A DNA stretch of 64,000 nucleotides from positions 1,196,554 to 1,260,553 of the forward strand of contig NZ_JALGCL010000001.1 in the NCBI RefSeq assembly GCF_022808325.1, written 5' to 3'. The position numbers and the translations under genes were made by a program. The notes below the pieces were generated by a model, which was not told the origin of the DNA, did not search any database, and saw nothing but the letters and a program-made list of their open reading frames with translations. This stretch comes from Cognatiluteimonas sedimenti. GTDB lineage: Bacteria; Pseudomonadota; Gammaproteobacteria; Xanthomonadales; Xanthomonadaceae. Positions 15,908 to 37,826 of the stretch are shown here, one piece after another; within the stretch, counting starts at the first letter, position 1; every line of letters starts with the position of its first letter.

Positions 15908-17293
15908 ATGCATGCATCCAGCCGTCGCCACCCGGTATCCCGCCCGTACCCGCTTTATTGCGCGCTCGCCACGGCCCTGCTCGCGGCCGTGCCTGCGTGG
16001 GCCCACGCCAGTGCCGTCACCCAGTGGAACACCATCGTGTCCACCGCGCCGGTGGCACCCGTGTTCGGTGGCCCGCCGCAACAGGCGCGGGTCAACGCCA
16101 TGGCCCAAGTCGCGGTGCACGACGCGCTGAATTCGATCGATCCGCGCTACCGGACCTACAGCGTCCTGCCGGGCGCCGCCGCGGACGCGAACCCGGAGGC
16201 CGCCATCGCCGCGGCAAACCATCGCGTGCTGCATGGACTGATCGACCCGAAGCCGGCGAGCGCGGGCAAGACCGCCGCCCTGGACGCCATCGATGCCGCC
16301 TATGCCACCGCGCTCGACGCGATCCCCGATGGCGACGCCGAAACCCATGGTGTCGCCGCCGGCGTCGCCGCGGCCGACGCGATCCTGGCCGCCCGCGCCA
16401 ACGACGGCTCCGACACCCCCAACCTGCCCTACGCGGCGCCGCTGGCCGTGGGTGTCTACCAGCCCACGCCGGTGATGGACACCGACCCGCAAGCCTACAT
16501 CGTGCCCGCCAACGAGGGCTGGGGCCGGATGCTGCCGTTCGTGATGCGCAGCCAGTCGCAGTTCCGCTTCGATCCCGGCGACCTGTTCGACGTCACCGGC
16601 AAGGCCTACACGCGCAACTACAACGAGGTGAAGGCCAAAGGCGATGCCCTGGTGCGTGGTGCCGCGCCGGATTCGGCGGAAAGCGACATCGCCCGCTTCT
16701 GGCCCGGCGGCGGCGCCAACTGGAACCGCGTGCTGCGCGAGATCCTGGCGGCACCGCAAAACAACCCGCAACTGGACCTCGACCTCGACCTGTGGCAGCA
16801 GGCGCGGCTGTTCGCGCTCGCCAACCTGGCCGAATCCGACGCCGCGATCGCGGTCTTCGACACCAAGTACGCCTACCGCTTCTGGCGCCCGGTCACCGCG
16901 ATCCGCTGGCAGGACGACGGCAACCCGGCGACCGCGCCCGACGCAGGCTGGTGGTCGTTCCTGGCCACCCCGCCCTACCCGGATTACGTCTGCGGCCTGA
17001 CCAATGCCAGCGGCGCCCATGCCGAAGTCCTGCGCCGCTTCTTCGGCACCGACGACATCGCCTGGGGCTTCACCTTCAACGCCCCGGCGGTACCGCTGCC
17101 GGCGCCGTTGCTGCCGCTGCCGGCCAAGCCGATCACGCGCGCCTTCGTATCGCTGCACGAGGCCACGGGCGAAGCGGTGGATGCGCGCGTGTTCGGCGGC
17201 ATGCATTTCCGCGAGGGCTGCGTGAAAGGCGTGAAGCAGGGCGAACAGGTCGGCCGTTTCGTGTTCCAGCACGCACTGCGCCCGCTGCGCTGA
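15908..17293 (+). CDS. vanadium-dependent haloperoxidase homologue with altered active site
   Basis: A 461-residue exported protein; a signal peptide ends near residue 34 (WAHA-SA). The all-helical PAP2/vanadium haloperoxidase fold is recognisable. Two vanadate-binding motifs are intact: K320...R327 in KYAYRFWRP, and R427 and H433 in ARVFGGMH. The middle motif, normally PSGH with Ser-Gly-His, reads VCGL at 361-364, so the Ser and His ligands are replaced by Cys and Leu. Loss of this His abolishes halide oxidation in characterised enzymes, so haloperoxidase activity is doubtful; a phosphatase-like or non-catalytic role is possible. The ATG at 15908 has GAGGA upstream. A DUF1232 gene begins 26 bases after it. 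Confidence 0.85.
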   Translation: MHASSRRHPVSRPYPLYCALATALLAAVPAWAHASAVTQWNTIVSTAPVAPVFGGPPQQARVNAMAQVAVHDALNSIDPRYRTYSVLPGAAADANPEAAIAAANHRVLHGLIDPKPASAGKTAALDAIDAAYATALDAIPDGDAETHGVAAGVAAADAILAARANDGSDTPNLPYAAPLAVGVYQPTPVMDTDPQAYIVPANEGWGRMLPFVMRSQSQFRFDPGDLFDVTGKAYTRNYNEVKAKGDALVRGAAPDSAESDIARFWPGGGANWNRVLREILAAPQNNPQLDLDLDLWQQARLFALANLAESDAAIAVFDTKYAYRFWRPVTAIRWQDDGNPATAPDAGWWSFLATPPYPDYVCGLTNASGAHAEVLRRFFGTDDIAWGFTFNAPAVPLPAPLLPLPAKPITRAFVSLHEATGEAVDARVFGGMHFREGCVKGVKQGEQVGRFVFQHALRPLR

Positions 17294-17319
17294 TCGCGGG
17301 TGCCCACCCGGAGTACGCC

Positions 17320-17988
17320 ATGAACGTGTTTGCAGCAAGAACGGCGCCGCCACGGCGCGCCAGCATGACCTTCCCGCTCGGCTTCCTCGATTTCCTCAAG
17401 GTCAGCCCCGGTCGCCGCCACCACGTCGGCGACTACGAGCTGCAGCCGCAGCGGCTCGAGCGCTTCAACCGGGTCCTGCGCGAACTCAGCCCGGAAGCGT
17501 CGGCGATGACCCTGGACCAGATCGCCAGCGCCGCCAAACGCGCGCTGGAAAGGCACCCCGACGGCAGCACGCCGCCGTTCGTGCAGGCGCGCATGGATGC
17601 GCTGCGGCGGCTGGAAGCGCTGGCTGTCGACGATGCCTTCGAGCCGGGCCCGGAGTTGCGGCGCCAGGTGCGCGTCCTGCAGGCCTACCGGGCCGACGAC
17701 GCGGACCTCATCCCGGACGACATCGCCGTGGTCGGCCTGCTCGACGATGCCGTGCTCGTCGACATCGCCCTGCAACTGCTGCAGCGCGAACTCGCCGATT
17801 ACGAGGATTTCTGCCGTTTCCGCAAGGTCGCGGCGGATTTCGCCGGGATGGACGAAGCCGCCACCGGCCTGACCCGCGGCCATTGGCTGGAAGCCCTCGA
17901 GCAGGCCCACGCCAGCCTGGCCAAGGTCGCGGCCACGCCGGTGCGTTTCGTGCCGGATCCGCGCGCCAGCTTGTTCCATATCGGCTGA
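17320..17988 (+). CDS. YkvA/DUF1232-family protein
   Basis: A 222-residue protein with the DUF1232 core near residues 126-160: DLIPDDIAVVGLLDDAVLVDIALQ in two parts. The family signature is LIPDxIPVxGxLDD. These are usually small membrane-associated proteins of unknown function. Here the core is embedded in a longer, mostly helical protein without a clear hydrophobic segment. The ATG at 17320 is used; an alternative ATG at 17365 (MTFPLGFLDFLK) is equally plausible. It follows the haloperoxidase homologue by 26 bases and is probably cotranscribed with it. No function can be assigned from sequence. Confidence 0.75.
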   Translation: MNVFAARTAPPRRASMTFPLGFLDFLKVSPGRRHHVGDYELQPQRLERFNRVLRELSPEASAMTLDQIASAAKRALERHPDGSTPPFVQARMDALRRLEALAVDDAFEPGPELRRQVRVLQAYRADDADLIPDDIAVVGLLDDAVLVDIALQLLQRELADYEDFCRFRKVAADFAGMDEAATGLTRGHWLEALEQAHASLAKVAATPVRFVPDPRASLFHIG

Positions 17989-18105
17989 TGCCAGGCACCG
18001 GTCGGCGGCCTGCCATCCATGCGATCCGCGTTCAACAGGGACGCAGGTCGCAATGCCGGAGGCAGGCGTGGCCAATGCCGGGTCGATGCCCATGAGCCGC
18101 CTGCC

Positions 18106-18801
18106 ATGAGCAGGTTCCAGACCACGCGCTGGAGCCTGATCGCCGCCGCCGCGCACGAGACCCCCGCGCATGCGCGGCCGGCGCTGGAACAGCTGTGCCG
18201 CGCCTACCGGCCACCGGTACTGGCCTACATCCGCCGCAGCGGCCATGCCGCCATCGATGCCGAGGACCTCGCGCAGGCGTTCTTCCTGCGCTTCCTGGAA
18301 CGCGGCTGGTACACCGACGCCGACCCGCGACGTGGCCGTTTCCGCAACCTGCTGCTGGCCTCGTTGCGGCATTTCCTCGTCGACGAGCACGCGCGCGAGG
18401 TCGCGGCGAAGCGCGGCGGCGGAGCCGCGCACGACGATGCAGACGCCGTGCAGCTGCAGGCTGACGAGGAGACACCGGAGCAGGCCTTCGACCGTGCCTG
18501 GCTGGGCACCGTGCTGGCACGGGCAATGGCGCGGCTGCAGCGCGAATGGATGATGGCCGGCAAGCAGTCGCAGTTCGCGAAGCTGGCGCCGTTGCTGGTC
18601 GAACGACCGGATCGCGACGCGGTGGGCAAGGTCGCCGACGCCAGCGGCCAGCGCGGCAACACGGTGTCGGTGCAGGTGCACCGCATGCGCAAGCGCCTGC
18701 GCCAGCTGGTGCGGCTGGAACTGATGCAGACCGTCGGCGACCGCGAGGCGCTCGAGGAGGAACTACAACAATTGCGCGTCGTGCTGGAAGCAGGCGCATG
18801 A
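18106..18801 (+). CDS. ECF sigma factor partnered with a Ser/Thr kinase
   Basis: A 231-residue sigma-70 family protein with an ECF architecture. Region 2 spans about residues 25-100 (DAEDLAQAFFLRFLERGW, then GRFRNLLLASLRHFLVDE), and region 4 ends with a helix-turn-helix (QRGNTVSVQVHRMRKRLRQLVR, read in two parts). The GRFR...LRHFL pattern is typical of ECF groups encoded beside Ser/Thr kinases, such as planctomycete ECF-STK pairs. The EcfK-PknS pair of Xanthomonas citri is a comparable arrangement. No anti-sigma factor gene is adjacent. The stop codon overlaps the kinase ATG (ATGA), so the two are translationally coupled. Kinase control by phosphorylation of region 2 is an inference from those systems. 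Confidence 0.9.
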   Translation: MSRFQTTRWSLIAAAAHETPAHARPALEQLCRAYRPPVLAYIRRSGHAAIDAEDLAQAFFLRFLERGWYTDADPRRGRFRNLLLASLRHFLVDEHAREVAAKRGGGAAHDDADAVQLQADEETPEQAFDRAWLGTVLARAMARLQREWMMAGKQSQFAKLAPLLVERPDRDAVGKVADASGQRGNTVSVQVHRMRKRLRQLVRLELMQTVGDREALEEELQQLRVVLEAGA

Positions 18802-21800
18802 GCGGCCCGCGCGATCCGCAACCCGCGGTGGAGGGCGGCCCGTCGCCCAGCCACTGGTGGCTGGATCCGGCGCTGGCGCAACTGGCCTTCGGTGCCAGCG
18901 TACGCGCCGGCAAGACGGCGTCGGTGTCGATCGCCTCGGCGATGTTCAATGCCCTGCAGGGCGCGGATGCGGCGACCCTGGACCTGGAGGATCCCGCGCA
19001 GCGCGCCTTCGGCGACTACGAGCTGTTGGAACAGATCGGCCAGGGCGGCATGGGCATGGTGTTCCGCGCCAGGCAGCAGCGACTGGGGCGGGAGGTGGCG
19101 ATCAAGCTGCTGTCGGCCGGCGCCTGGGCGCCAGAACCGCTGGTCGACAGCCTGCGCCGCGAGGCCCGCCACGCCGCGCAACTGCAGCACGCCAACATCG
19201 TCACCGTGTTCGAGATGGGCGAGCACGAGGGCCTGATCTTCTATGCGATGCAACTGGTGCGCGGGCGCAGCCTCTCGCAGCAACTCGACGCCGACGGCCC
19301 GCTGCCGGCACGCGACGCGGCGCGGCTGCTGCGAACGATCGCCGAGGCAGTGGACTACGCGCACCAGCTCGGCGTGCTCCACCTCGACCTCAAGCCCGGC
19401 AACATCCTGATCGAAGCCAACCACGGCGATGGCGCCGGCGCACCGCTGGTCACCGACTTCGGCCTGGCGCGGCGGATCGAACAGGCGCTGGAGCGCGACA
19501 ACATCTCGGGCACGCCCAGCTACATGGCGCCGGAACAGGCGCGCACCGACGGCCCGGCGCTGACGCCCGCCACCGACGTCTGGGCGCTGGGTGCGGTGCT
19601 GTACGAAAGCCTGACGGGGCATCCGCCCTTCGAAGGCGAGGACGCCGCCGCTACTGTGCGCCTGTTGCTGGAAGCCGAGGTGCGCAAGCCCAGCCGCTAC
19701 CTGAGCGTGCCGGGCGACCTCGAGGCGATCTGCCTGAAATGCCTGCGCAAGGATCCCGCACAGCGCTATCCCGATGCGCGCGCGCTTGCGGACGACCTCG
19801 GCCATTACCTCGAAGGCCGCGAAGTCAGCGTGCGCCCGCTCAGCGCAGCGCAACGACTGTGGCGCTGGGCGCGGCGCGAGCCACGGGTTGCTGGCGGCCT
19901 GGGCTTTGCCGTGCTGTCGCTGGTAGTCGGGGTGTTCGCCACTTCGCTGCAGTGGCAACGCGCCGACGCCAACGCCCGCACCGCCAGCGAGCGCCTGTGG
20001 GAAACGCGGCGCGAAGCGGCGGTGCGCGCCAGCATGGATGGCAACGGCAACGATGCCCTGCCGCGCCTGCTCGCCAACATCCAGGAACTCGAGGGCGCCG
20101 GCGACGGCGACGCGGCGCTGCTGGACCGGCGCCGCTTCGGCATGCTGGCGCAGCAGGGCGTACAGCTGATCGACGCCATCGCGGTGGCCGACGCCAATCC
20201 GATGGCCGTGGAACTCAGCCCCGACGGCAGCCTGCTCGCCATCGCCTACAACGACCTGAGCGTGCGCTGGTACGACACCGCGACCTTGCACGAGCGCGGC
20301 CGCGCCAGCCTGCAGGGCCGCAAGAGCGCCGACGGCGGGCCGCGGCTGCCGATCCTGCTGCGCTTCGCCGGCGACTCCCTGCTGCGCGTCACCCTGCACT
20401 GGTACGACAACCAGACCAGCCCGACCGACGGCGACAGCTGGCTGGTCGACCTGCGGCGCGCGGCCGTCGTCGAGCCGCCGCCCGGGTTCGCCGATTTCGC
20501 CGACGCCAACTTCAGCGACGACGGCACGCTGGCGCTGCTGCGCGACCGCCGCAAGCGGGTGCAACTGTGGCAGGTGTCGCCGTGGCAGCCGCGCTCCCCG
20601 CTGATCGATCCCGGTGGCGCTGGACGCGTGGATGACCTGAGCTGGCTGCTGGGTCCGCGGATGGTGGCAATGCTGCCGGTGGCGATGCTCGAGATGCACC
20701 TGTTCCGGATGCCGCGCCTTGCGGCCGCGGGCAAGCTCGCGATGCCCAACCGGGTCTCGGTGTCCGCCTGGAACCAAAGCCATGACGGGCACTGGATCGC
20801 GTTGGGCAATTTCGATGGACAGCTGTTCCTGCTCGACACCCGGCTGCGCACGCTGCGCACGTTGCCGACCGCGCGCGGGCGCGAGATCACCTGGGTGGAA
20901 TTCAGCAGCGACGACGCCTGGCTGGCGGCCTGCAGCTACGACGGCACCGCCTATGCCTTCGATGTCGCCAGCGGCGAGGTGCTGGTCTCCGGGCAGATGC
21001 GCCACGATTTCATCCTGCATCGGGTCGGCATCGACCACGGGCAGCGCCTGCTGGTCGCCGCGGGCGAAGGCCGGGTCGGGCTGTGGCGCATCCCGCGCGC
21101 CGGACCGCGTGCGTCGGCGGCGCAGCGGATCGACCTGGCGCCGGCGCCGCATGGACTGAGCGGGCCCTACGCGGCCAGCTGGTCGTTCCGCAGCGGCCTG
21201 CTCGCCAGCGCGGGCATCGACGGCCAGGTACGCCTGTGGCGCCTGCCGCGGCCCCCCTCCCTGCCGGCGCTGGCGCCGCGGCAGATCGCCGAGGAACTGG
21301 AGTTCGACGGCCAGCGCATCGTCGACGTGGAATGGCACCGGCTGCGTCTCTATTCGACTTCCCGCGGTGCCTCGTCGCCGTGGCTCGAACTGCCGCAGCC
21401 TCCCGGCTTCGCCGAGCTGGTCGACCGCGGCCGCACCCTGCTGGTCACCGTGGGGCCGAGCCTTCGGGTGTACGACGTACCTTCGCTGCGGCTGCGGTTC
21501 GCGCCGATCGCCCTGCCCGACAGTCCGCAGCGGTTGCTGGCATCGCCGGACGGCGGGCGCGTACTGCTCAGCTTCGGCGGACACGGCCCGGTCGGCTTCG
21601 AGGATCGCCTGCGCCAGTACGATCTTCGGCGCGGCACGCGGCTGGCCGGCGACCTCGCCCTGCCCGGTCCACTGCGGCAGATCGCGTTTTCCGCCGATGG
21701 TTCGCGCCTGCTCGCGGTCGGACCGGCCGAAGCCGCCACCGACGTGCTGGCAGCCACGCGCCTGGGGCGGCTGGCGCAATACCCGCATGACGCCTTCCAG

Positions 21801-23162
21801 CCGGTGACCTGGGCGGCATTCGCGCCGGGCCGTCGCGACCTGCTGCTGGCCACGCGCGCGCCGGACCCACGACTGGGAAGCGACGTGCTGATGGATTGGG
21901 ATCCCGATGCCGACGCGGTGCGCTCCGAGCGCCCGCTGGGTGCGGCGCAACCGCTGTCGGTGATTGCCTACGGGGCGCGGACCTACGTCGCCGGACTCGG
22001 CACCGACCTGTTGTTCAATGCCAGCGGCGCGGCGCGCGCCGCCCAGCGCTACACCGGTACGGAAGCCACCGCGGTTGCGGCGCTCAGTCCGGATGCGCGG
22101 ATCGTCGCCCATGCCTTCCGCCGCGAGGTGCAACTGGTCGACGCGCGCAGCGGTACGGCCATCGGCCCCCCGCTGCAGGCCGACATCAATGCCATAGACG
22201 TGCTGCAGCAGCTGGCGTTTGCGCCGGACGGCCGCTCCCTGCTCGGCCGCTCCCTGCACGGACATTGGCTGTTGTGGCCGATCGCGCCGGACCTCCGGCC
22301 GACGGCGCAAATCGCCGAACGGCTCGGTTACACCCAGGTCCAGGACGACCACCCGGCGCGCCTGCGGGCACTGGACGCAGCGAAGCGCAACGCGCTGCGC
22401 GCCAGCGATCCCGGGCCCTGGCCCGCGGTCGAACCGCGCCCCCCGGTCACCGCCAGCCACAGTGCCAACCGGCACTGGCAAGTCGGGCGCCCGAACCTGG
22501 ACCGTGGCCCGATCCCGGATCGCGACCCCGCCACGCCGCCGCAGATGCTGGACCTGGCGGCGCACTACAATCGCTCGCCCGATGGCGTGGAGATGCCGTT
22601 CTACAGCGTGCGCGCACAACTGCGTCCGTATCCGGTTGGCGTGCAGCGCATCGGTGGCATCGACTTCGACTTGCGTGGCGTCATGGATGTCTCCAGGAAC
22701 GACGACAACGTCGGCAACCTGCCGATGGGCCCGCGATGCATCGAGATTCCTGCCGCCCGCGTCGCCGCGGTGCATGCGCTGGTGCAGTCGGTGATCCGGC
22801 AGCCCACCGAAGTGGTCACCACGATCGCCAGCCTGACCTGGCGCTACCGCGACGGCAGCCGGGCGCGGGTGCCGATCCGCACCCTGCGGGAAGTGCCCGG
22901 CTTCTCCGGGCGCGACCAGCAGGTGCCGGAAGTGTTCGGCATCAGCCTGGCCTCGCGGTACTTCGGCTTCCGTGGTGAAACCCTGAGCGCGCCACGCCTG
23001 CCCAATCCGCAGCCCGGGCGCGCGGTGGACGCGCTCTGCCTCTCCATCCCCGACGACGCGGAGCCGCTGTCGGTGTTCGCGCTCACGCTGGAGGGCGCCA
23101 CGAAGCCGCCTTTCGTCGGAAAGCCTGCCATTGCCGCGGCCGTTTCCCGTAACCACCATTGA
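18798..23162 (+). CDS. membrane Ser/Thr kinase with extracytoplasmic beta-propeller-like region
   Basis: A 1454-residue kinase. A cytoplasmic PknB-type kinase domain spans about 73-338: glycine loop IGQGGMGMVF (80-89), catalytic Lys103 in VAIKLL, HLDLKPGN at 195-202 (Asp197; the usual HRD Arg is Leu), DFG at 220-222, and SGTPSYMAPEQ. One membrane helix follows at about 366-384. The remaining 1070 residues, predicted outside the membrane, contain WD40/quinoprotein-like repeats (VELSPDGSLLAIAYNDLSVRWYD and later repeats). A C-terminal module near 1250-1450 (GIDFDLRGVMDVSR) resembles domains at the ends of planctomycete kinases. It overlaps the sigma gene by 4 bases. It probably senses an envelope signal and controls the sigma factor. 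Confidence 0.92.
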   Translation: MSGPRDPQPAVEGGPSPSHWWLDPALAQLAFGASVRAGKTASVSIASAMFNALQGADAATLDLEDPAQRAFGDYELLEQIGQGGMGMVFRARQQRLGREVAIKLLSAGAWAPEPLVDSLRREARHAAQLQHANIVTVFEMGEHEGLIFYAMQLVRGRSLSQQLDADGPLPARDAARLLRTIAEAVDYAHQLGVLHLDLKPGNILIEANHGDGAGAPLVTDFGLARRIEQALERDNISGTPSYMAPEQARTDGPALTPATDVWALGAVLYESLTGHPPFEGEDAAATVRLLLEAEVRKPSRYLSVPGDLEAICLKCLRKDPAQRYPDARALADDLGHYLEGREVSVRPLSAAQRLWRWARREPRVAGGLGFAVLSLVVGVFATSLQWQRADANARTASERLWETRREAAVRASMDGNGNDALPRLLANIQELEGAGDGDAALLDRRRFGMLAQQGVQLIDAIAVADANPMAVELSPDGSLLAIAYNDLSVRWYDTATLHERGRASLQGRKSADGGPRLPILLRFAGDSLLRVTLHWYDNQTSPTDGDSWLVDLRRAAVVEPPPGFADFADANFSDDGTLALLRDRRKRVQLWQVSPWQPRSPLIDPGGAGRVDDLSWLLGPRMVAMLPVAMLEMHLFRMPRLAAAGKLAMPNRVSVSAWNQSHDGHWIALGNFDGQLFLLDTRLRTLRTLPTARGREITWVEFSSDDAWLAACSYDGTAYAFDVASGEVLVSGQMRHDFILHRVGIDHGQRLLVAAGEGRVGLWRIPRAGPRASAAQRIDLAPAPHGLSGPYAASWSFRSGLLASAGIDGQVRLWRLPRPPSLPALAPRQIAEELEFDGQRIVDVEWHRLRLYSTSRGASSPWLELPQPPGFAELVDRGRTLLVTVGPSLRVYDVPSLRLRFAPIALPDSPQRLLASPDGGRVLLSFGGHGPVGFEDRLRQYDLRRGTRLAGDLALPGPLRQIAFSADGSRLLAVGPAEAATDVLAATRLGRLAQYPHDAFQPVTWAAFAPGRRDLLLATRAPDPRLGSDVLMDWDPDADAVRSERPLGAAQPLSVIAYGARTYVAGLGTDLLFNASGAARAAQRYTGTEATAVAALSPDARIVAHAFRREVQLVDARSGTAIGPPLQADINAIDVLQQLAFAPDGRSLLGRSLHGHWLLWPIAPDLRPTAQIAERLGYTQVQDDHPARLRALDAAKRNALRASDPGPWPAVEPRPPVTASHSANRHWQVGRPNLDRGPIPDRDPATPPQMLDLAAHYNRSPDGVEMPFYSVRAQLRPYPVGVQRIGGIDFDLRGVMDVSRNDDNVGNLPMGPRCIEIPAARVAAVHALVQSVIRQPTEVVTTIASLTWRYRDGSRARVPIRTLREVPGFSGRDQQVPEVFGISLASRYFGFRGETLSAPRLPNPQPGRAVDALCLSIPDDAEPLSVFALTLEGATKPPFVGKPAIAAAVSRNHH

Positions 23163-23265
23163 AGGCGACCGGGTGGAGGCAACCGGATCCGGATCCGCCG
23201 CGCCCAAGCCCCCGATCGAAGGCCGTCATCGCAACCCGCACAAGCAGCCACCGGAGAAGTTCGCC

Positions 23266-23730
23266 ATGTACCGGACCATCCCCGCCATCGCCGCGTTTTT
23301 CACCATTACCCTCGCTGCGCTGCCCGTGCATGCCTGCGGCGAGGGCCAGTTCAACCTGGGCCAGGGCATGCGCTACCAGGGCTACCTGGCGCCGCGCCCC
23401 GCCACGGTGCTGGTATACGACCAGGATCCCGCCCAGCGCCGCTCGATCTACCAGGGCCTGGACCGCGCCGGCCACCACCTGACGGTCGCCCGTACCCAGG
23501 ACGACCTGGTCCGCGCATTGCGCAGCAAGCACTTCGACGTGGTCATCAGCGAACTCGGCGATTCCGGCGCGATCGACGCCGGGTCCGGGCGCCTGCTGCC
23601 GGTGGTGCAGCGCCAGCAACGCAACGACGCGGGCCTCCGCGGCCGCTTCCAGGTCTTCCTGCTCGACGGCGCCAGCCTCGGGCAGTACCTGAAGGGCATC
23701 GACCGCTTGCTTCGGGGCACGCTGAAATGA
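23266..23730 (+). CDS. exported receiver-like (pseudo-REC) protein
   Basis: A 154-residue protein. Residues 1-23 form a signal peptide ending VHA-C. Residues 45-153 read like a response-regulator receiver fold: ATVLVYDQDPAQRRSIYQGL (strand 1 and helix 1, with Asp52 and Asp54), then FDVVISELGDSG (strand 3). The position of the phospho-accepting Asp is Glu96. This is a phosphomimetic substitution, and such a domain outside the cytoplasm could not be phosphorylated by a normal histidine kinase. The kinase gene ends 103 bases upstream, and the beta-barrel gene overlaps the stop codon by 4 bases. The receiver relationship is my reading of the pattern and needs a structure check. Confidence 0.7.
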   Translation: MYRTIPAIAAFFTITLAALPVHACGEGQFNLGQGMRYQGYLAPRPATVLVYDQDPAQRRSIYQGLDRAGHHLTVARTQDDLVRALRSKHFDVVISELGDSGAIDAGSGRLLPVVQRQQRNDAGLRGRFQVFLLDGASLGQYLKGIDRLLRGTLK

Positions 23731-24671
23731 CAGCGCGCGCGGCGCGATGGAGCGTCTTCGCGCTGGCGGCCTGTACCGTGCTGGGGTGGATCCCGCAGGC
23801 GCGGGCCGACGGCGACGAATTCGACGCTGGCGGCGGCGCCGATCCCGGCGGACAGCGCGGCACCATGTCGCTGGCCTACCAGACCCTGCACAGTTCCGGC
23901 CTGCTGCTGCAGGACGGCATCAACAACCATGGCGCGATCACCGACACGCAGAGCCTGCGGCTGTCGGTCGACTACCTGCTCGATGGCGGCTGGGAGCTGC
24001 ATGCGGCGCTGCCCTACATCAGCAAGCGCTCGCTGCACGACAATGGCAACCACAATCCCCTGAACCTGGTCCTGCCGCACCCGGAGTCGCAGTTCCTGGA
24101 CGATGGCCGCTACCACGGCGGGCTGCAGGACCTGCAACTGGGCGTGTCCCGCCACCTCGTGCGGGGCCGCTACCGGATCGAGCCGCACGTGGTGCTGACC
24201 TGGCCCAGCCACGACTACACCTTCTTCGCCAATGCCGCGATCGGCCAGCACCTGCGCAAGCTCAAGTTCGGCGCGGACGTGACCCGCCAGCTGGCGGACT
24301 CGAACTTCTACTGGTCGGCGGGCTACGACTACGAGTTCACCGAGAAGGTGATGGACATCGGCATCGACAAGCAGCACGCGCGGCTTGCCGCCGGGTATTT
24401 CTTCAGCCCGACCTGGTCGGGACGCGTGTTCGCCACCATGCGCCGCAGCCAGGGGCGCGACGCCGACTTCTTCAGCCCTGCCAACCGCGACGAATACTGG
24501 TACCACCACGACCAGTTGTCGCGGCACAACTACGCCATCGCCGGATTCGGCGCGACCTGGCGCATCAACGACCGCTACGCGCTGTCAGGAACCGTCGGCA
24601 GGATGGTCTGGGGCCGCACCGTGCACGAGCTCAAGCGCGCCTACGAACTGGAACTCAGCCGCAGCTTCTGA
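23727..24671 (+). CDS. outer-membrane beta-barrel protein
   Basis: A 314-residue exported protein. A signal peptide runs to about residue 28 (QARA-DG). The mature part is rich in alternating aromatic and hydrophobic stretches (LRLSVDYLLDGGWELHAALP, then TRQLADSNFYWSAGYDYEF), and it ends in an aromatic residue (LSRSF). That is the classical C-terminal signature for BAM-dependent insertion. It looks like the transporter/porin-like proteins of unknown substrate often annotated as 'transporter'. The ATG overlaps the stop of the receiver-like gene (ATGA), so the two are translationally coupled. It is the last gene of the sigma-kinase module; 296 bases separate it from metK. Confidence 0.8.
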   Translation: MTARAARWSVFALAACTVLGWIPQARADGDEFDAGGGADPGGQRGTMSLAYQTLHSSGLLLQDGINNHGAITDTQSLRLSVDYLLDGGWELHAALPYISKRSLHDNGNHNPLNLVLPHPESQFLDDGRYHGGLQDLQLGVSRHLVRGRYRIEPHVVLTWPSHDYTFFANAAIGQHLRKLKFGADVTRQLADSNFYWSAGYDYEFTEKVMDIGIDKQHARLAAGYFFSPTWSGRVFATMRRSQGRDADFFSPANRDEYWYHHDQLSRHNYAIAGFGATWRINDRYALSGTVGRMVWGRTVHELKRAYELELSRSF

Positions 24672-24967
24672 CCACCGGTGCCGCGGCCCGTTGCGGCCTG
24701 CATGGCCGCGCACCGGCAGCGCGGGCCGCAACGCCCGCGGGAACCGTGGCGGCGGCAAGTCCCGGGCGCGATCCGGGCCGCAGGGAAACCCGTGAACCCG
24801 TCCGACGCGCAACAGCCGCGCGGCGGATCCCGGGACGACAATGAACGGCGCCGCGCCCGCGCCGGGCCGCCGCACGTACGCCGTCCTGGGGCATCATGCA
24901 GTCCCCCGGCCGGGCGTGTATCATGCACGGCCATCCTTTCATCCGCATCAAGGGATATAAGCCTACG
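24672..24967 (+). promoter_or_regulatory. metK upstream region
   Basis: This 296-base non-coding stretch holds the metK promoter candidates: TATCAT at 24919-24924 and TATAAG at 24956-24961 (the latter exactly six bases before the ATG). AAGGG at 24950-24954 is a possible ribosome site. The octamer ATCATGCA occurs twice (24893-24900 and 24920-24927), the second copy overlapping the -10. No SAM riboswitch pattern was recognised. Confidence 0.35.
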
Positions 24968-26185
24968 ATGACCAGCTCCGCCTACCTGTTCACTTCCGAA
25001 TCGGTCTCCGAAGGCCATCCGGACAAGGTCGCCGACCAGATTTCCGACGCCGTGCTCGACGCGATCCTGGCCCAGGACAAACGCGCCCGCGTGGCCTGCG
25101 AAACCATGGTCAAGACCGGCGTGGCGATCGTCGCCGGCGAGATCACCACGTCCGCATGGATCGACCTCGAGGCCTTGACCCGCAAGGTGATCCTGGACAT
25201 CGGCTACGACAGCAGCGAAGTCGGTTTCGACGGCGCCACCTGCGGCGTGCTCAACCTGATCGGCAAGCAGTCGCCCGACATCAACCAGGGCGTCGACCGC
25301 AAGAAGCCCGAGGAACAGGGCGCCGGCGACCAGGGCCTGATGTTCGGCTACGCCACCAACGAGACCGACAGCGGCATGCCGGCGGCAATCCATCTCTCGC
25401 ACCGGCTGGTCGAGCAGCAGGCCAAGGTGCGCAAGAAGAAGAATTCCCCGCTGCCGTGGCTGCGCCCGGATGCGAAGTCGCAGGTCACCCTGCGCTACGA
25501 GGACGGCAAGGCGGTGGCCATCGACGCGGTGGTGCTGTCGACCCAGCACGACCCCGACGTGAAGCAGAAGGACTTGGTGGAGGCGGTGCGCGAGCACATC
25601 CTCAAGCCGGTGCTGCCCGCCAAGTGGCTGCACAAGGGCACCAAGTTCCACATCAACCCGACCGGCAAGTTCGTGATCGGCGGCCCGGTCGGCGATTGCG
25701 GCCTGACCGGCCGCAAGATCATCGTCGACACCTACGGCGGCTGGGCCCGCCACGGCGGCGGCGCGTTCTCGGGCAAGGATCCGTCCAAGGTCGACCGCTC
25801 GGCGGCCTACGCCGCGCGTTACGTGGCCAGGAACATCGTTGCCGCCGGCCTGGCCGACCGTTGCGAAGTGCAGGTGAGCTACGCGATCGGCGTCGCCCAC
25901 CCGACCTCGATCTCGGTCACCACGTTCGGCACCGGCAAGGTCTCCGATGCGCAGATCGAGAAGCTGATCCGCGCGCACTTCGACCTGCGCCCGTACGGGA
26001 TCCTGCGGATGCTCGACCTGATCCACCCGATGTACCAGCGCACCGCTTCCTATGGCCACTTCGGCCGCAAGCCGGAAGTGGTCGAGTACGTCGACGGCGC
26101 GGGCAAGAAGCAGAAGGCGACCGCATTCTCGTGGGAGCAGACCGACAAGGCCGAGGAACTGCGCAAGGCCGCGAAGCTGAAGTAG
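24968..26185 (+). CDS. metK: S-adenosylmethionine synthetase
   Basis: A 405-residue enzyme that joins methionine and ATP to make S-adenosylmethionine. The family signatures are complete: [21 protein letters not shown] at the N-terminus with the ATP-binding His, and [12 protein letters not shown] near residue 118. The glycine-rich [22 protein letters not shown], read in two parts near 260-280, is also present. The length matches the family, with a slightly long central loop ([10 protein letters not shown]). The ATG at 24968 starts the canonical N-terminus. The downstream genes ahcY and metF complete the activated methyl cycle; a strong 13-bp stem and the SAH riboswitch lie between metK and ahcY. 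Confidence 0.98.
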
Positions 26186-26222: not shown

Positions 26223-26263
26223 GCAAGACAGGCGCGGACGTCGAGCGACGGCCGCGCCCTCCT

Positions 26264-26343
26264 CCATCGAGGGGCGCTGCAAGCCCGGCGCAAGGCGCAA
26301 GGGAACAGGCTCGATGGACGGCAAACGCAACAACGGCGCCCGT
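26264..26343 (+). ncRNA. SAH riboswitch
   Basis: The segment fits the S-adenosylhomocysteine riboswitch consensus: GAGGGGCGCTGC at 26269-26280, CAGGCTCG around 26306-26313, and AACGGCGCC at 26332-26340. Pairings are exact: P1 CCATCGAG (26264-26271) with CTCGATGG (26310-26317), 8 bp; and the pseudoknot GGGCGC (26272-26277) with GCGCCC (26336-26341). It sits 56 bases before the ahcY ATG, the position where this riboswitch turns on ahcY when the toxic by-product SAH accumulates. Confidence 0.93.
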
Positions 26344-26398
26344 TAATGCGAGTCCCTGCCAACAGCGCATGCGGACTTCCAACAACGGAGCAACACAC

Positions 26399-37342: not shown

Positions 37343-37826
37343 CGCCGCAATGCGGCCTGCAGCGAGGAATACGCGCGCCGCAGGCGGGGAAGTACTGGCG
37401 GGCAAGTTGCCCTGTGCGAGCATGGCGCCGTTCAAGCAACGGGCGACGGACTGTCGTTGACCATGCCATCCACCGGCCAGCCGAGCCGAGGTCTCGGATC
37501 CGGGTGCGTCCAGCCGGACCGGCCAAAACCGCGCGATGACCACCGGCGGTATGGGAACCCGGCTGTCCCTCGGCGGTGGGGTGATCGCCGGGACCCATGG
37601 GCTTTGCGACGCCGGCTTGCGCCGGTTGTGCGTTTGGCGTACCGCGCGATGGCACCGCGCGCGAGCCGACGACCGGTCCGGGGTCAGGGGTGCCGCCTGA
37701 CCGGATCGCCCACTCATTGCGCTACACGCACCGGGGAACGAGCGGCGGCCACGGATCCGCACATTCCGGCACCTGGCTGACCATCGGCCGTCCATGGCCG
37801 ACCGACGGCGCTGGTAACATTCGTCC
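37343..37826. other. thiS-thiG gap, no convincing gene
   Basis: This 484-base stretch has no convincing coding frame; a 107-codon open frame at 37457-37780 looks like compositional noise rich in Arg and Pro. It contains several stem-loops: GCCGC/GCGGC directly after thiS, and GGTCAGG/CCTGACC (37682-37688 with 37696-37702). It also contains a TAACAT hexamer (37815-37820) before thiG. No TPP-riboswitch signature was seen. Confidence 0.5.
37815..37820 (+). promoter_or_regulatory. -10-like TAACAT before thiG, leaderless arrangement
   Basis: TAACAT is followed by six bases and the thiG ATG at 37827, with no ribosome site. This suggests thiG is transcribed from its own promoter. Confidence 0.45.

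What the first reader, a model, noticed from the sequence alone, without database searches (positions are those of the whole stretch)
18106..24671. Four-gene ECF sigma factor / giant Ser-Thr kinase / exported receiver-like protein / outer-membrane barrel module
Seen: an ECF sigma factor gene overlaps the kinase gene (ATGA), the receiver-like gene follows 103 bases later and overlaps the barrel gene (ATGA). No anti-sigma factor is present. Known: ECF factors paired with Ser/Thr kinases occur in planctomycetes and in Xanthomonas citri (EcfK-PknS, controlling type VI secretion), where phosphorylation replaces an anti-sigma factor. Inference: the kinase's large extracytoplasmic propeller may sense an envelope signal, possibly delivered by the exported receiver-like protein, and the barrel may be the source of the signal or an output gene. 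I know of no description of this gene set.
Basis: partly seen in the sequence, partly recalled or inferred. Interest (0 to 1): 0.78.

Follow-up and report, generated by a model that had tools for sequence, protein, structure and literature searches.

The report
Kinase-linked sigma operon with surface barrel
A bacterial signalling operon joins a gene-switching sigma factor, a giant membrane protein kinase and a cell-surface barrel with a small exported partner; the set recurs in relatives, which suggests that the kinase ties events at the outer membrane to gene expression without the usual anti-sigma factor.

Summary
The four genes are real, at the stated coordinates, with both ATGA overlaps and the 103-base gap. 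Of 395 family genomes, 8 have the exported receiver-like protein; they are exactly those with a close homologue of this kinase, and it stands beside kinase and barrel each time. A ninth set lies in another family of the order. The receiver-barrel pair also occurs without the kinase (six genomes), so it is a unit that the kinase locus recruited.

Two results change the picture. First, the sigma keeps DAED in region 2.2 and so fails the defining ECF43 (EcfK/EcfP) feature. Second, 17 of 34 kinase loci carry two sigmas, the second degenerate in region 2.2 (this window lacks it), and 11 of 34 have a TonB-dependent receptor instead of the barrel pair. The general plan is sigma, pseudo-sigma, kinase, outer-membrane protein. 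I read it as kinase-based surface signalling; conservation is shown, while signal, direction and phosphorylation are inferred. Against it: about ten such kinases have no outer-membrane partner beside them. The receiver-like protein lacks a conserved phosphoacceptor and its model is weak; the ectodomain model failed. New variant of a known kind.

The parts
18106..18801 (+). ECF sigma factor of the sigma-A type; DAED of region 2.2 at residues 51-54 (18256-18267)
18798..23162 (+). receptor Ser/Thr kinase, 1454 aa; overlaps the sigma gene by ATGA
19017..19772 (+). kinase domain, residues 74-325, with HLDLKPGN in place of HRDxKxxN
19881..19955 (+). single hydrophobic stretch, residues 362-386, presumed membrane span
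   Evidence: hydropathy only
19956..23159 (+). presumed periplasmic part with WD40-type matches (best around residues 651-767); last ~250 aa without a Pfam match
   Evidence: side of the membrane inferred; structure model failed
23266..23730 (+). exported receiver-like protein (pseudo-receiver), invariant A-C-G after a signal-like stretch
23727..24671 (+). outer-membrane barrel-like protein (weak PF13557 match, C-terminal Phe invariant in the alignment); overlaps the receiver gene by ATGA

Best explanation
The operon is a kinase-controlled sigma switch tied to the outer membrane. Shown: sigma, kinase, exported pseudo-receiver and barrel form one conserved, tightly packed, one-strand unit, and related loci vary on the plan sigma-A, sigma-B (degenerate in region 2.2), kinase, then receiver plus barrel or a TonB-dependent receptor. 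Inferred from the families: the kinase spans the inner membrane, catalytic domain inside and WD40-like part in the periplasm, and controls the sigma in place of an anti-sigma factor, by phosphorylation somewhere other than a missing region-2.2 charge, since those charges are present. Inferred from the gene slot: the periplasmic part monitors the co-encoded outer-membrane protein (here the barrel, with the pseudo-receiver as periplasmic adaptor; elsewhere a TonB receptor), and the sigma feeds back on its own operon. Sigma-B would be a partner of sigma-A or of the kinase that does not itself bind polymerase normally; this window's sigma belongs to a subtype that goes without it.
For: Eight of 395 family genomes have the full-length receiver; all eight have the close kinase and have both genes beside it; a ninth set in another family. 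Kinase end to next partner domain: -4 to 106 bases in seven of nine sets. The pair label needs 2 changes on the kinase tree, shuffled mean 8.0, 0 of 500 shuffles as low. In 11 of 34 kinase loci a TonB-dependent receptor is on the same strand, nine times directly after the kinase, in genomes with 5-38 plug matches each (ten genomes checked). Sigma-B and an outer-membrane partner go together in 28 readable loci: 16/1/2/9, Fisher p 7e-5. Sigma-A acidic at motif positions 3 and 4 in 26 of 26 readable rows, sigma-B in 2 of 20.
Against: No transcript, binding or phosphorylation data. Nine of the 28 readable loci have neither partner nor sigma-B, and L069 has sigma-B without a partner, so the kinase can do without a co-encoded outer-membrane protein; two partner-less rows (L054, L055) are nested among the receiver-barrel kinases. 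The sigma-B association drops to suggestive when relatedness is allowed for (5 independent pairs, 4.0 agree, 0 against, median p 0.125, range 0.0625-0.5). The pair lives without the kinase in six genomes. The TonB receptors tested (3) show no STN domain. The window itself has a partner but no sigma-B.
Confidence: 0.45

Rival explanations
1. Output only: the kinase senses a separate envelope or external cue, and the receiver-barrel pair (or the TonB receptor) is a target of the sigma that rides in its operon, for instance a surface transporter with its periplasmic partner; nothing passes from barrel to kinase.
For: The pair exists without kinase and sigma in six genomes, so it has a job of its own; nine readable kinase loci have no such partner; PF13557-like barrels and TonB receptors are mostly transport proteins (family knowledge, recalled).
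Against: Output genes need not stay next to the kinase, yet an outer-membrane protein of one of two unrelated kinds is there at 20 of 34 kinase loci.
Confidence: 0.33
2. Kinase as a brake: the kinase holds or phosphorylates the sigma to keep it off, acting like an anti-sigma factor, and a signal at the periplasmic part releases it. Sigma-B, where present, would compete for the same site.
For: The sigma keeps DAED and so need not be charged up to bind polymerase; sigma-B is a degenerate paralogue kept next to sigma-A in 17 of 34 loci.
Against: Described cases (EcfP, EcfK) are activating; sigma-B is absent here.
Confidence: 0.11
3. ECF43-type switch: phosphorylation in region 2.2 supplies the negative charge needed to bind polymerase, as in EcfP/EcfK.
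For: Sigma next to a receptor kinase, no anti-sigma gene seen; EcfK also has linker phosphosites, and Thr123 in the acidic linker is Ser/Thr in 89% of 27 sigma-A rows.
Against: DAED is present; Ser/Thr stands in the motif in 1 of 26 readable sigma-A rows (L064) and in 4 of 20 sigma-B rows.
Confidence: 0.06
4. Passengers: the sigma-kinase pair is the system; receiver and barrel merely landed at a variable site before metK.
For: The stretch between kinase and metK differs between relatives; the 8 other genomes of the genus searched have no match to the ectodomain.
Against: Nine sets in two families, mostly tight spacing, with a 4-base overlap in L050.
Confidence: 0.05

Closest known systems
ECF43 sigma-kinase pairs: EcfK-PknS (Xanthomonas citri), EcfP-PknT (Vibrio parahaemolyticus)
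   Same: ECF sigma encoded next to a receptor Ser/Thr kinase, no anti-sigma factor
   Different: ECF43 lacks the acidic region-2.2 motif; here DAED is intact. Kinase has HLD where PknS is described with H/YRD. The papers' passages that I saw name no outer-membrane partner; in PMC13147305 'TonB' and 'outer membrane' occur 0 times.
DAED-bearing kinase-associated ECF groups (ECF59, 61, 62, 217, 283; several from planctomycetes)
   Same: sigma with DAED-like motif next to a kinase gene; mechanism stated to be open
   Different: group membership not tested; the degenerate second sigma and outer-membrane partner are not mentioned in the section read
Receptor kinases with periplasmic WD40 arrays (Planctomycetota)
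   Same: cytoplasmic kinase, membrane span, WD40 repeats on the other side
   Different: here single kinase genes tied to sigma genes; kinship between the two groups not tested
Cell-surface signalling, FecA-FecR-FecI / FoxA-FoxR-FoxI type
   Same: ECF sigma, inner-membrane regulator with a periplasmic part, outer-membrane protein, encoded together
   Different: kinase instead of anti-sigma factor; small barrel plus exported pseudo-receiver here; TonB receptors of sister loci without a detected STN domain (3 tested)

Membership tests
ECF43 | gene next to a receptor Ser/Thr kinase, no anti-sigma gene beside it | tested here: met
ECF43 | acidic DxxD motif of region 2.2 replaced by uncharged residues with a conserved phospho-Thr | tested here: not met
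   DAED at residues 51-54; acid at positions 3 and 4 in 26 of 26 readable sigma-A rows; definition
DAED-bearing kinase-associated ECF groups | DAED-like motif and neighbouring kinase gene | tested here: met
DAED-bearing kinase-associated ECF groups | match to the ECF group models | not testable with these tools
   models and classification paper not held
Cell-surface signalling | membrane anti-sigma factor | tested here: not met
   a kinase stands in its place; no anti-sigma family among the Pfam matches shown for the kinase or the eight neighbours
Cell-surface signalling | TonB-dependent transducer with N-terminal STN domain | tested here: not met
   window barrel has no plug or TonB-receptor match; in sister loci plug and barrel but no STN at E<=0.01 in 3 of 11 receptors tested
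Response-regulator receiver domain | receiver fold | tested here: inconclusive
   model pLDDT 61.8; Foldseek no match at E<=0.001 and a decarboxylase first, then mostly receivers at TM 0.3-0.5; VIA Z 6.9-8.2, first row a designed protein, then mostly receivers
Response-regulator receiver domain | conserved phosphoacceptor Asp at the end of strand 3 | tested here: not met
   the six-letter stretch after the conserved D/E-x-V ends in E, S, A, D, A, D, A, D, G in nine homologues; position assigned by me from the recalled receiver pattern
Receptor kinase with periplasmic WD40 part | kinase domain, one membrane stretch, WD40-type matches after it | tested here: met
   (topology by hydropathy only)

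The most novel reading that the evidence does not exclude
A separate route across the Gram-negative envelope to an ECF sigma: an outer-membrane protein (a TonB receptor, or a small barrel with an exported pseudo-receiver as its periplasmic messenger) is read by the WD40 part of a non-RD receptor kinase, which controls a DAED-bearing sigma, with a degenerate second sigma acting as a pseudo-sigma inside the relay.
Probability: 0.27. Interest if true: 0.84.

Novelty: new variant of a known kind. Interest (0 to 1): 0.63.

Why it matters
How kinases control those ECF sigmas that keep DAED is stated to be open (PMC8999054, section 3.4). These loci are a compact test case with natural variants: with or without the degenerate sigma, with a barrel pair, a TonB receptor or neither. 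If the outer-membrane protein feeds the kinase, this is surface signalling without an anti-sigma factor. A receiver-like protein exported from the cytoplasm would itself be unusual.

Tried and rejected
Ectodomain structure: the two-sequence model failed (pLDDT 30.3), so there is no blade count and no fold for the C-terminal ~250 aa (no Pfam match). Receiver model: usable core only; not decisive. Promoters: no sigma-70-like site in 17900-25000; no hexamer pair shared upstream of 23 sigma-A genes above shuffles (5 against 4-5). Class-wide receiver search: 18 of 369 genomes at E<=1e-4, only the window's own match full-length, the rest 23-29 bits, nearly all in long frames. Class-wide ectodomain search: 2 of 158, both of the same family. 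Plasmids: no receiver match. Genome-contig scan: two loci, L012 over residues 10-149 and L013 over 47-98 only, the latter not pursued. ECF43 phospho-switch considered and set low. L071 and L103 have no sigma match in the stretch read.

Rows dropped or weak. L070 was left out of the kinase tree and of the two-by-two table (kinase split over frames). L012 and L102 have no readable sigma side; L051, L063 and L101 end inside or just after the kinase. L063 and L101 were still labelled 'without pair' in the tree count, which could hide a pair. L071 and L103 (no sigma at all) count as 'no sigma-B, no partner'. L072 starts at sigma-B, so its sigma-A is unknown. L092 lacks the start of sigma-A and the end of the barrel. 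Two fragmentary kinase matches (G822:C170, G806:C142) were not fetched. L047 (G744:C193) was taken as the same record as L012 on equal length and match places, not by alignment. Trait coding was typed by hand; the map agrees with it. Trees are quick; one search is the careful sigma tree. The AU test held nine sigma-A rows together (those of receiver-barrel loci plus L051, whose downstream end is unread) after a first tree had been seen; it rejects one clade for the nine as a whole, not for the window row in particular.
Full report
OBSERVATION. The kinase is secure (Pkinase 5.5e-49; WD40 1.7e-11, over its cut-off). The sigma is recognised by general sigma models just under their cut-offs. 'Receiver-like' and 'barrel' rest on weak matches (0.0035 and 0.0017, under cut-off) and on their homologues. 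Downstream lie metK and the SAH hydrolase gene with a SAH riboswitch.

CONSERVATION OF THE MODULE. The kinase ectodomain (1047 aa) matched 23 of 395 family genomes at E<=1e-20, 15 of 299 order genomes and, at E<=1e-15, 2 of 158 class genomes, both of the same family. The 8 other genomes of the genus searched had none. The receiver profile matched 10 of 395 family genomes at E<=1e-8; two of these (37 bits, in frames over 700 aa) look like receiver domains of larger proteins; the other 8 are exactly the genomes with a kinase more than 40% identical in the ectodomain. At each of these loci receiver and barrel stand beside the kinase on the same strand; L053 has them in the other order. A ninth set, L092, lies in another family of the order. 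From kinase end to the next partner domain the distance is -4 to 106 bases in seven of nine sets, 259 in L010 and 666 in L048. On the kinase tree (33 rows) the nine lie in one 12-row group of support 100, together with L051 (cut off) and two rows without the pair (L054, L055); the label needs 2 changes, shuffled mean 8.0, 0 of 500 shuffles as low (quick tree; L063 and L101, cut soon after the kinase, counted as without pair).

THE PAIR ALONE. In the order search the receiver also occurs in G057 and in five genomes of family f7 (9 of 299 in all); none of these six has a kinase match. A barrel adjoins the receiver at 8 of 8 loci examined (L011, L092-L098; in L098 the barrel reads in two frames and the receiver runs into masked bases; L092 and L097 end within the barrel). 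In f7 the pair has a neighbour of one thioredoxin-like family at 6 of 6 loci (Pfam run on the one of L093), each with a CxxC; a TPR membrane protein follows at 5 of 6, L097 being cut. The pair is an envelope unit of its own that the kinase locus took up.

TWO SIGMAS. Of 34 kinase loci 17 carry both sigma types before the kinase, 10 (the window among them; in L056 it follows the kinase) only sigma-A, 3 only sigma-B, 4 none that could be read. The two types are separated by a branch of 100/100 support, 27 against 20 rows. Sigma-A keeps acid at motif positions 3 and 4 in 26 of 26 readable rows, sigma-B in 2 of 20; Ser/Thr stands in the motif in 1 of 26 and 4 of 20. The window's sigma belongs to a group of five of support 100/99 or better (with L054, L055, L058, L059), none of which has sigma-B. 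The kinases of L058 and L059, however, fall with L060, L061 and L063 in another group of support 100, and the window's kinase with the receiver-barrel kinases. So sigma and kinase seem to have been exchanged independently at these loci. Holding the sigma-A rows of the receiver-barrel loci (with L051) together is rejected (AU p 2.7e-49; tested after a first tree had been seen).

TONB RECEPTORS IN SISTER LOCI. At 11 of 34 kinase loci a TonB-dependent receptor stands on the same strand, nine times directly after the kinase, twice upstream (L056, L057). Three were run in Pfam: plug and barrel, no STN at E<=0.01. None of the nine receiver-barrel loci has one in the stretch read. Ten genomes checked, eight of them with such a locus, hold 5-38 plug matches each, so adjacency by chance is unlikely. 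In the 28 loci readable on both sides, sigma-B and an outer-membrane partner go together (16 both, 1 sigma-B only, 2 partner only, 9 neither; Fisher p 7e-5). Allowing for relatedness there are 5 independent pairs, 4.0 in agreement on average and 0 against, median p 0.125 (range 0.0625-0.5): suggestive only. The window is one of the two loci with a partner but no sigma-B.

THE PROTEINS. The kinase has Gly loop, Lys, catalytic Asp and DFG, but HLD in place of HRD in 32 of 32 readable rows. That non-RD kinases often do not depend on activation-loop phosphorylation is recalled, not from a call. PknS is described with H/YRD. The receiver-like protein has a signal-like stretch (residues 4-25, hydropathy only), then an invariant A-C-G (lipoprotein or ordinary cleavage: not decided), and no conserved phosphoacceptor: Asp in 3 of 9 homologues at the place I assign to it. 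Its two-sequence model is of low confidence (pLDDT 61.8); most structural neighbours are receivers, but at scores that can mean a common arrangement only, and the first rows are a decarboxylase (Foldseek) and a designed protein (VIA). The ectodomain model failed.

MECHANISM. Sequence and comparison show a conserved unit and its variants. That the kinase controls the sigma is the standard inference for such pairs (PMC8999054, section 3.4 read; PMC13147305, passages), and the first of these states that groups with DAED may work differently. I infer that the outer-membrane protein is what the periplasmic part watches, because the slot is filled by outer-membrane proteins of two unrelated kinds at 20 of 34 loci; the output-only rival explains nearly as much and gets 0.33. 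Loci without any partner count against a strict requirement.

KNOWN AND NEW. Sigma-kinase pairs and periplasmic-WD40 kinases (PMC11032199, passages) are known. Surface signalling with an anti-sigma factor and STN receptors is known (PMC11637429, passages). Searches of open papers listed no title or abstract start that describes this gene set, a tandem degenerate sigma with a kinase, or TonB receptors with sigma-kinase pairs. The main ECF classification paper is not held, so absence from print is not shown.

Noticed in passing
L010, L048-L053, L060, L063, L064, L066-L068, L092, L100, L101, L104, between sigma-A and kinase: A second sigma gene, degenerate in region 2.2, stands before the kinase in 17 of 34 loci together with sigma-A; the window lacks it.
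   Followed up: yes
L056, L057, L060, L064, L066, L067, L068, L072, L100, L102, L104: A TonB-dependent receptor gene on the same strand beside the kinase, nine times directly after it.
   Followed up: partly
L093-L098: In another family the receiver-barrel pair stands without kinase or sigma, beside a membrane-anchored thioredoxin-like protein with CxxC and TPR proteins.
   Followed up: partly
window 18798-23162, kinase residues 195-203: HLD instead of HRD in the catalytic loop in 32 of 32 readable relatives: a non-RD kinase family.
   Followed up: partly
L012 3554-6504: The receiver-barrel pair is duplicated in tandem; both genes of the second copy are interrupted by an in-frame stop. L048 has two barrels and L010 a barrel fragment.
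   Followed up: no
window 15958-17988: An upstream frame without a Pfam match has relatives upstream of the same kinase in L052, L054, L055, L062 and L065.
   Followed up: no
window 26263-26348 (+) and 37550-37642 (-): A SAH riboswitch at the SAH hydrolase gene and a c-di-GMP-I riboswitch.
   Followed up: no
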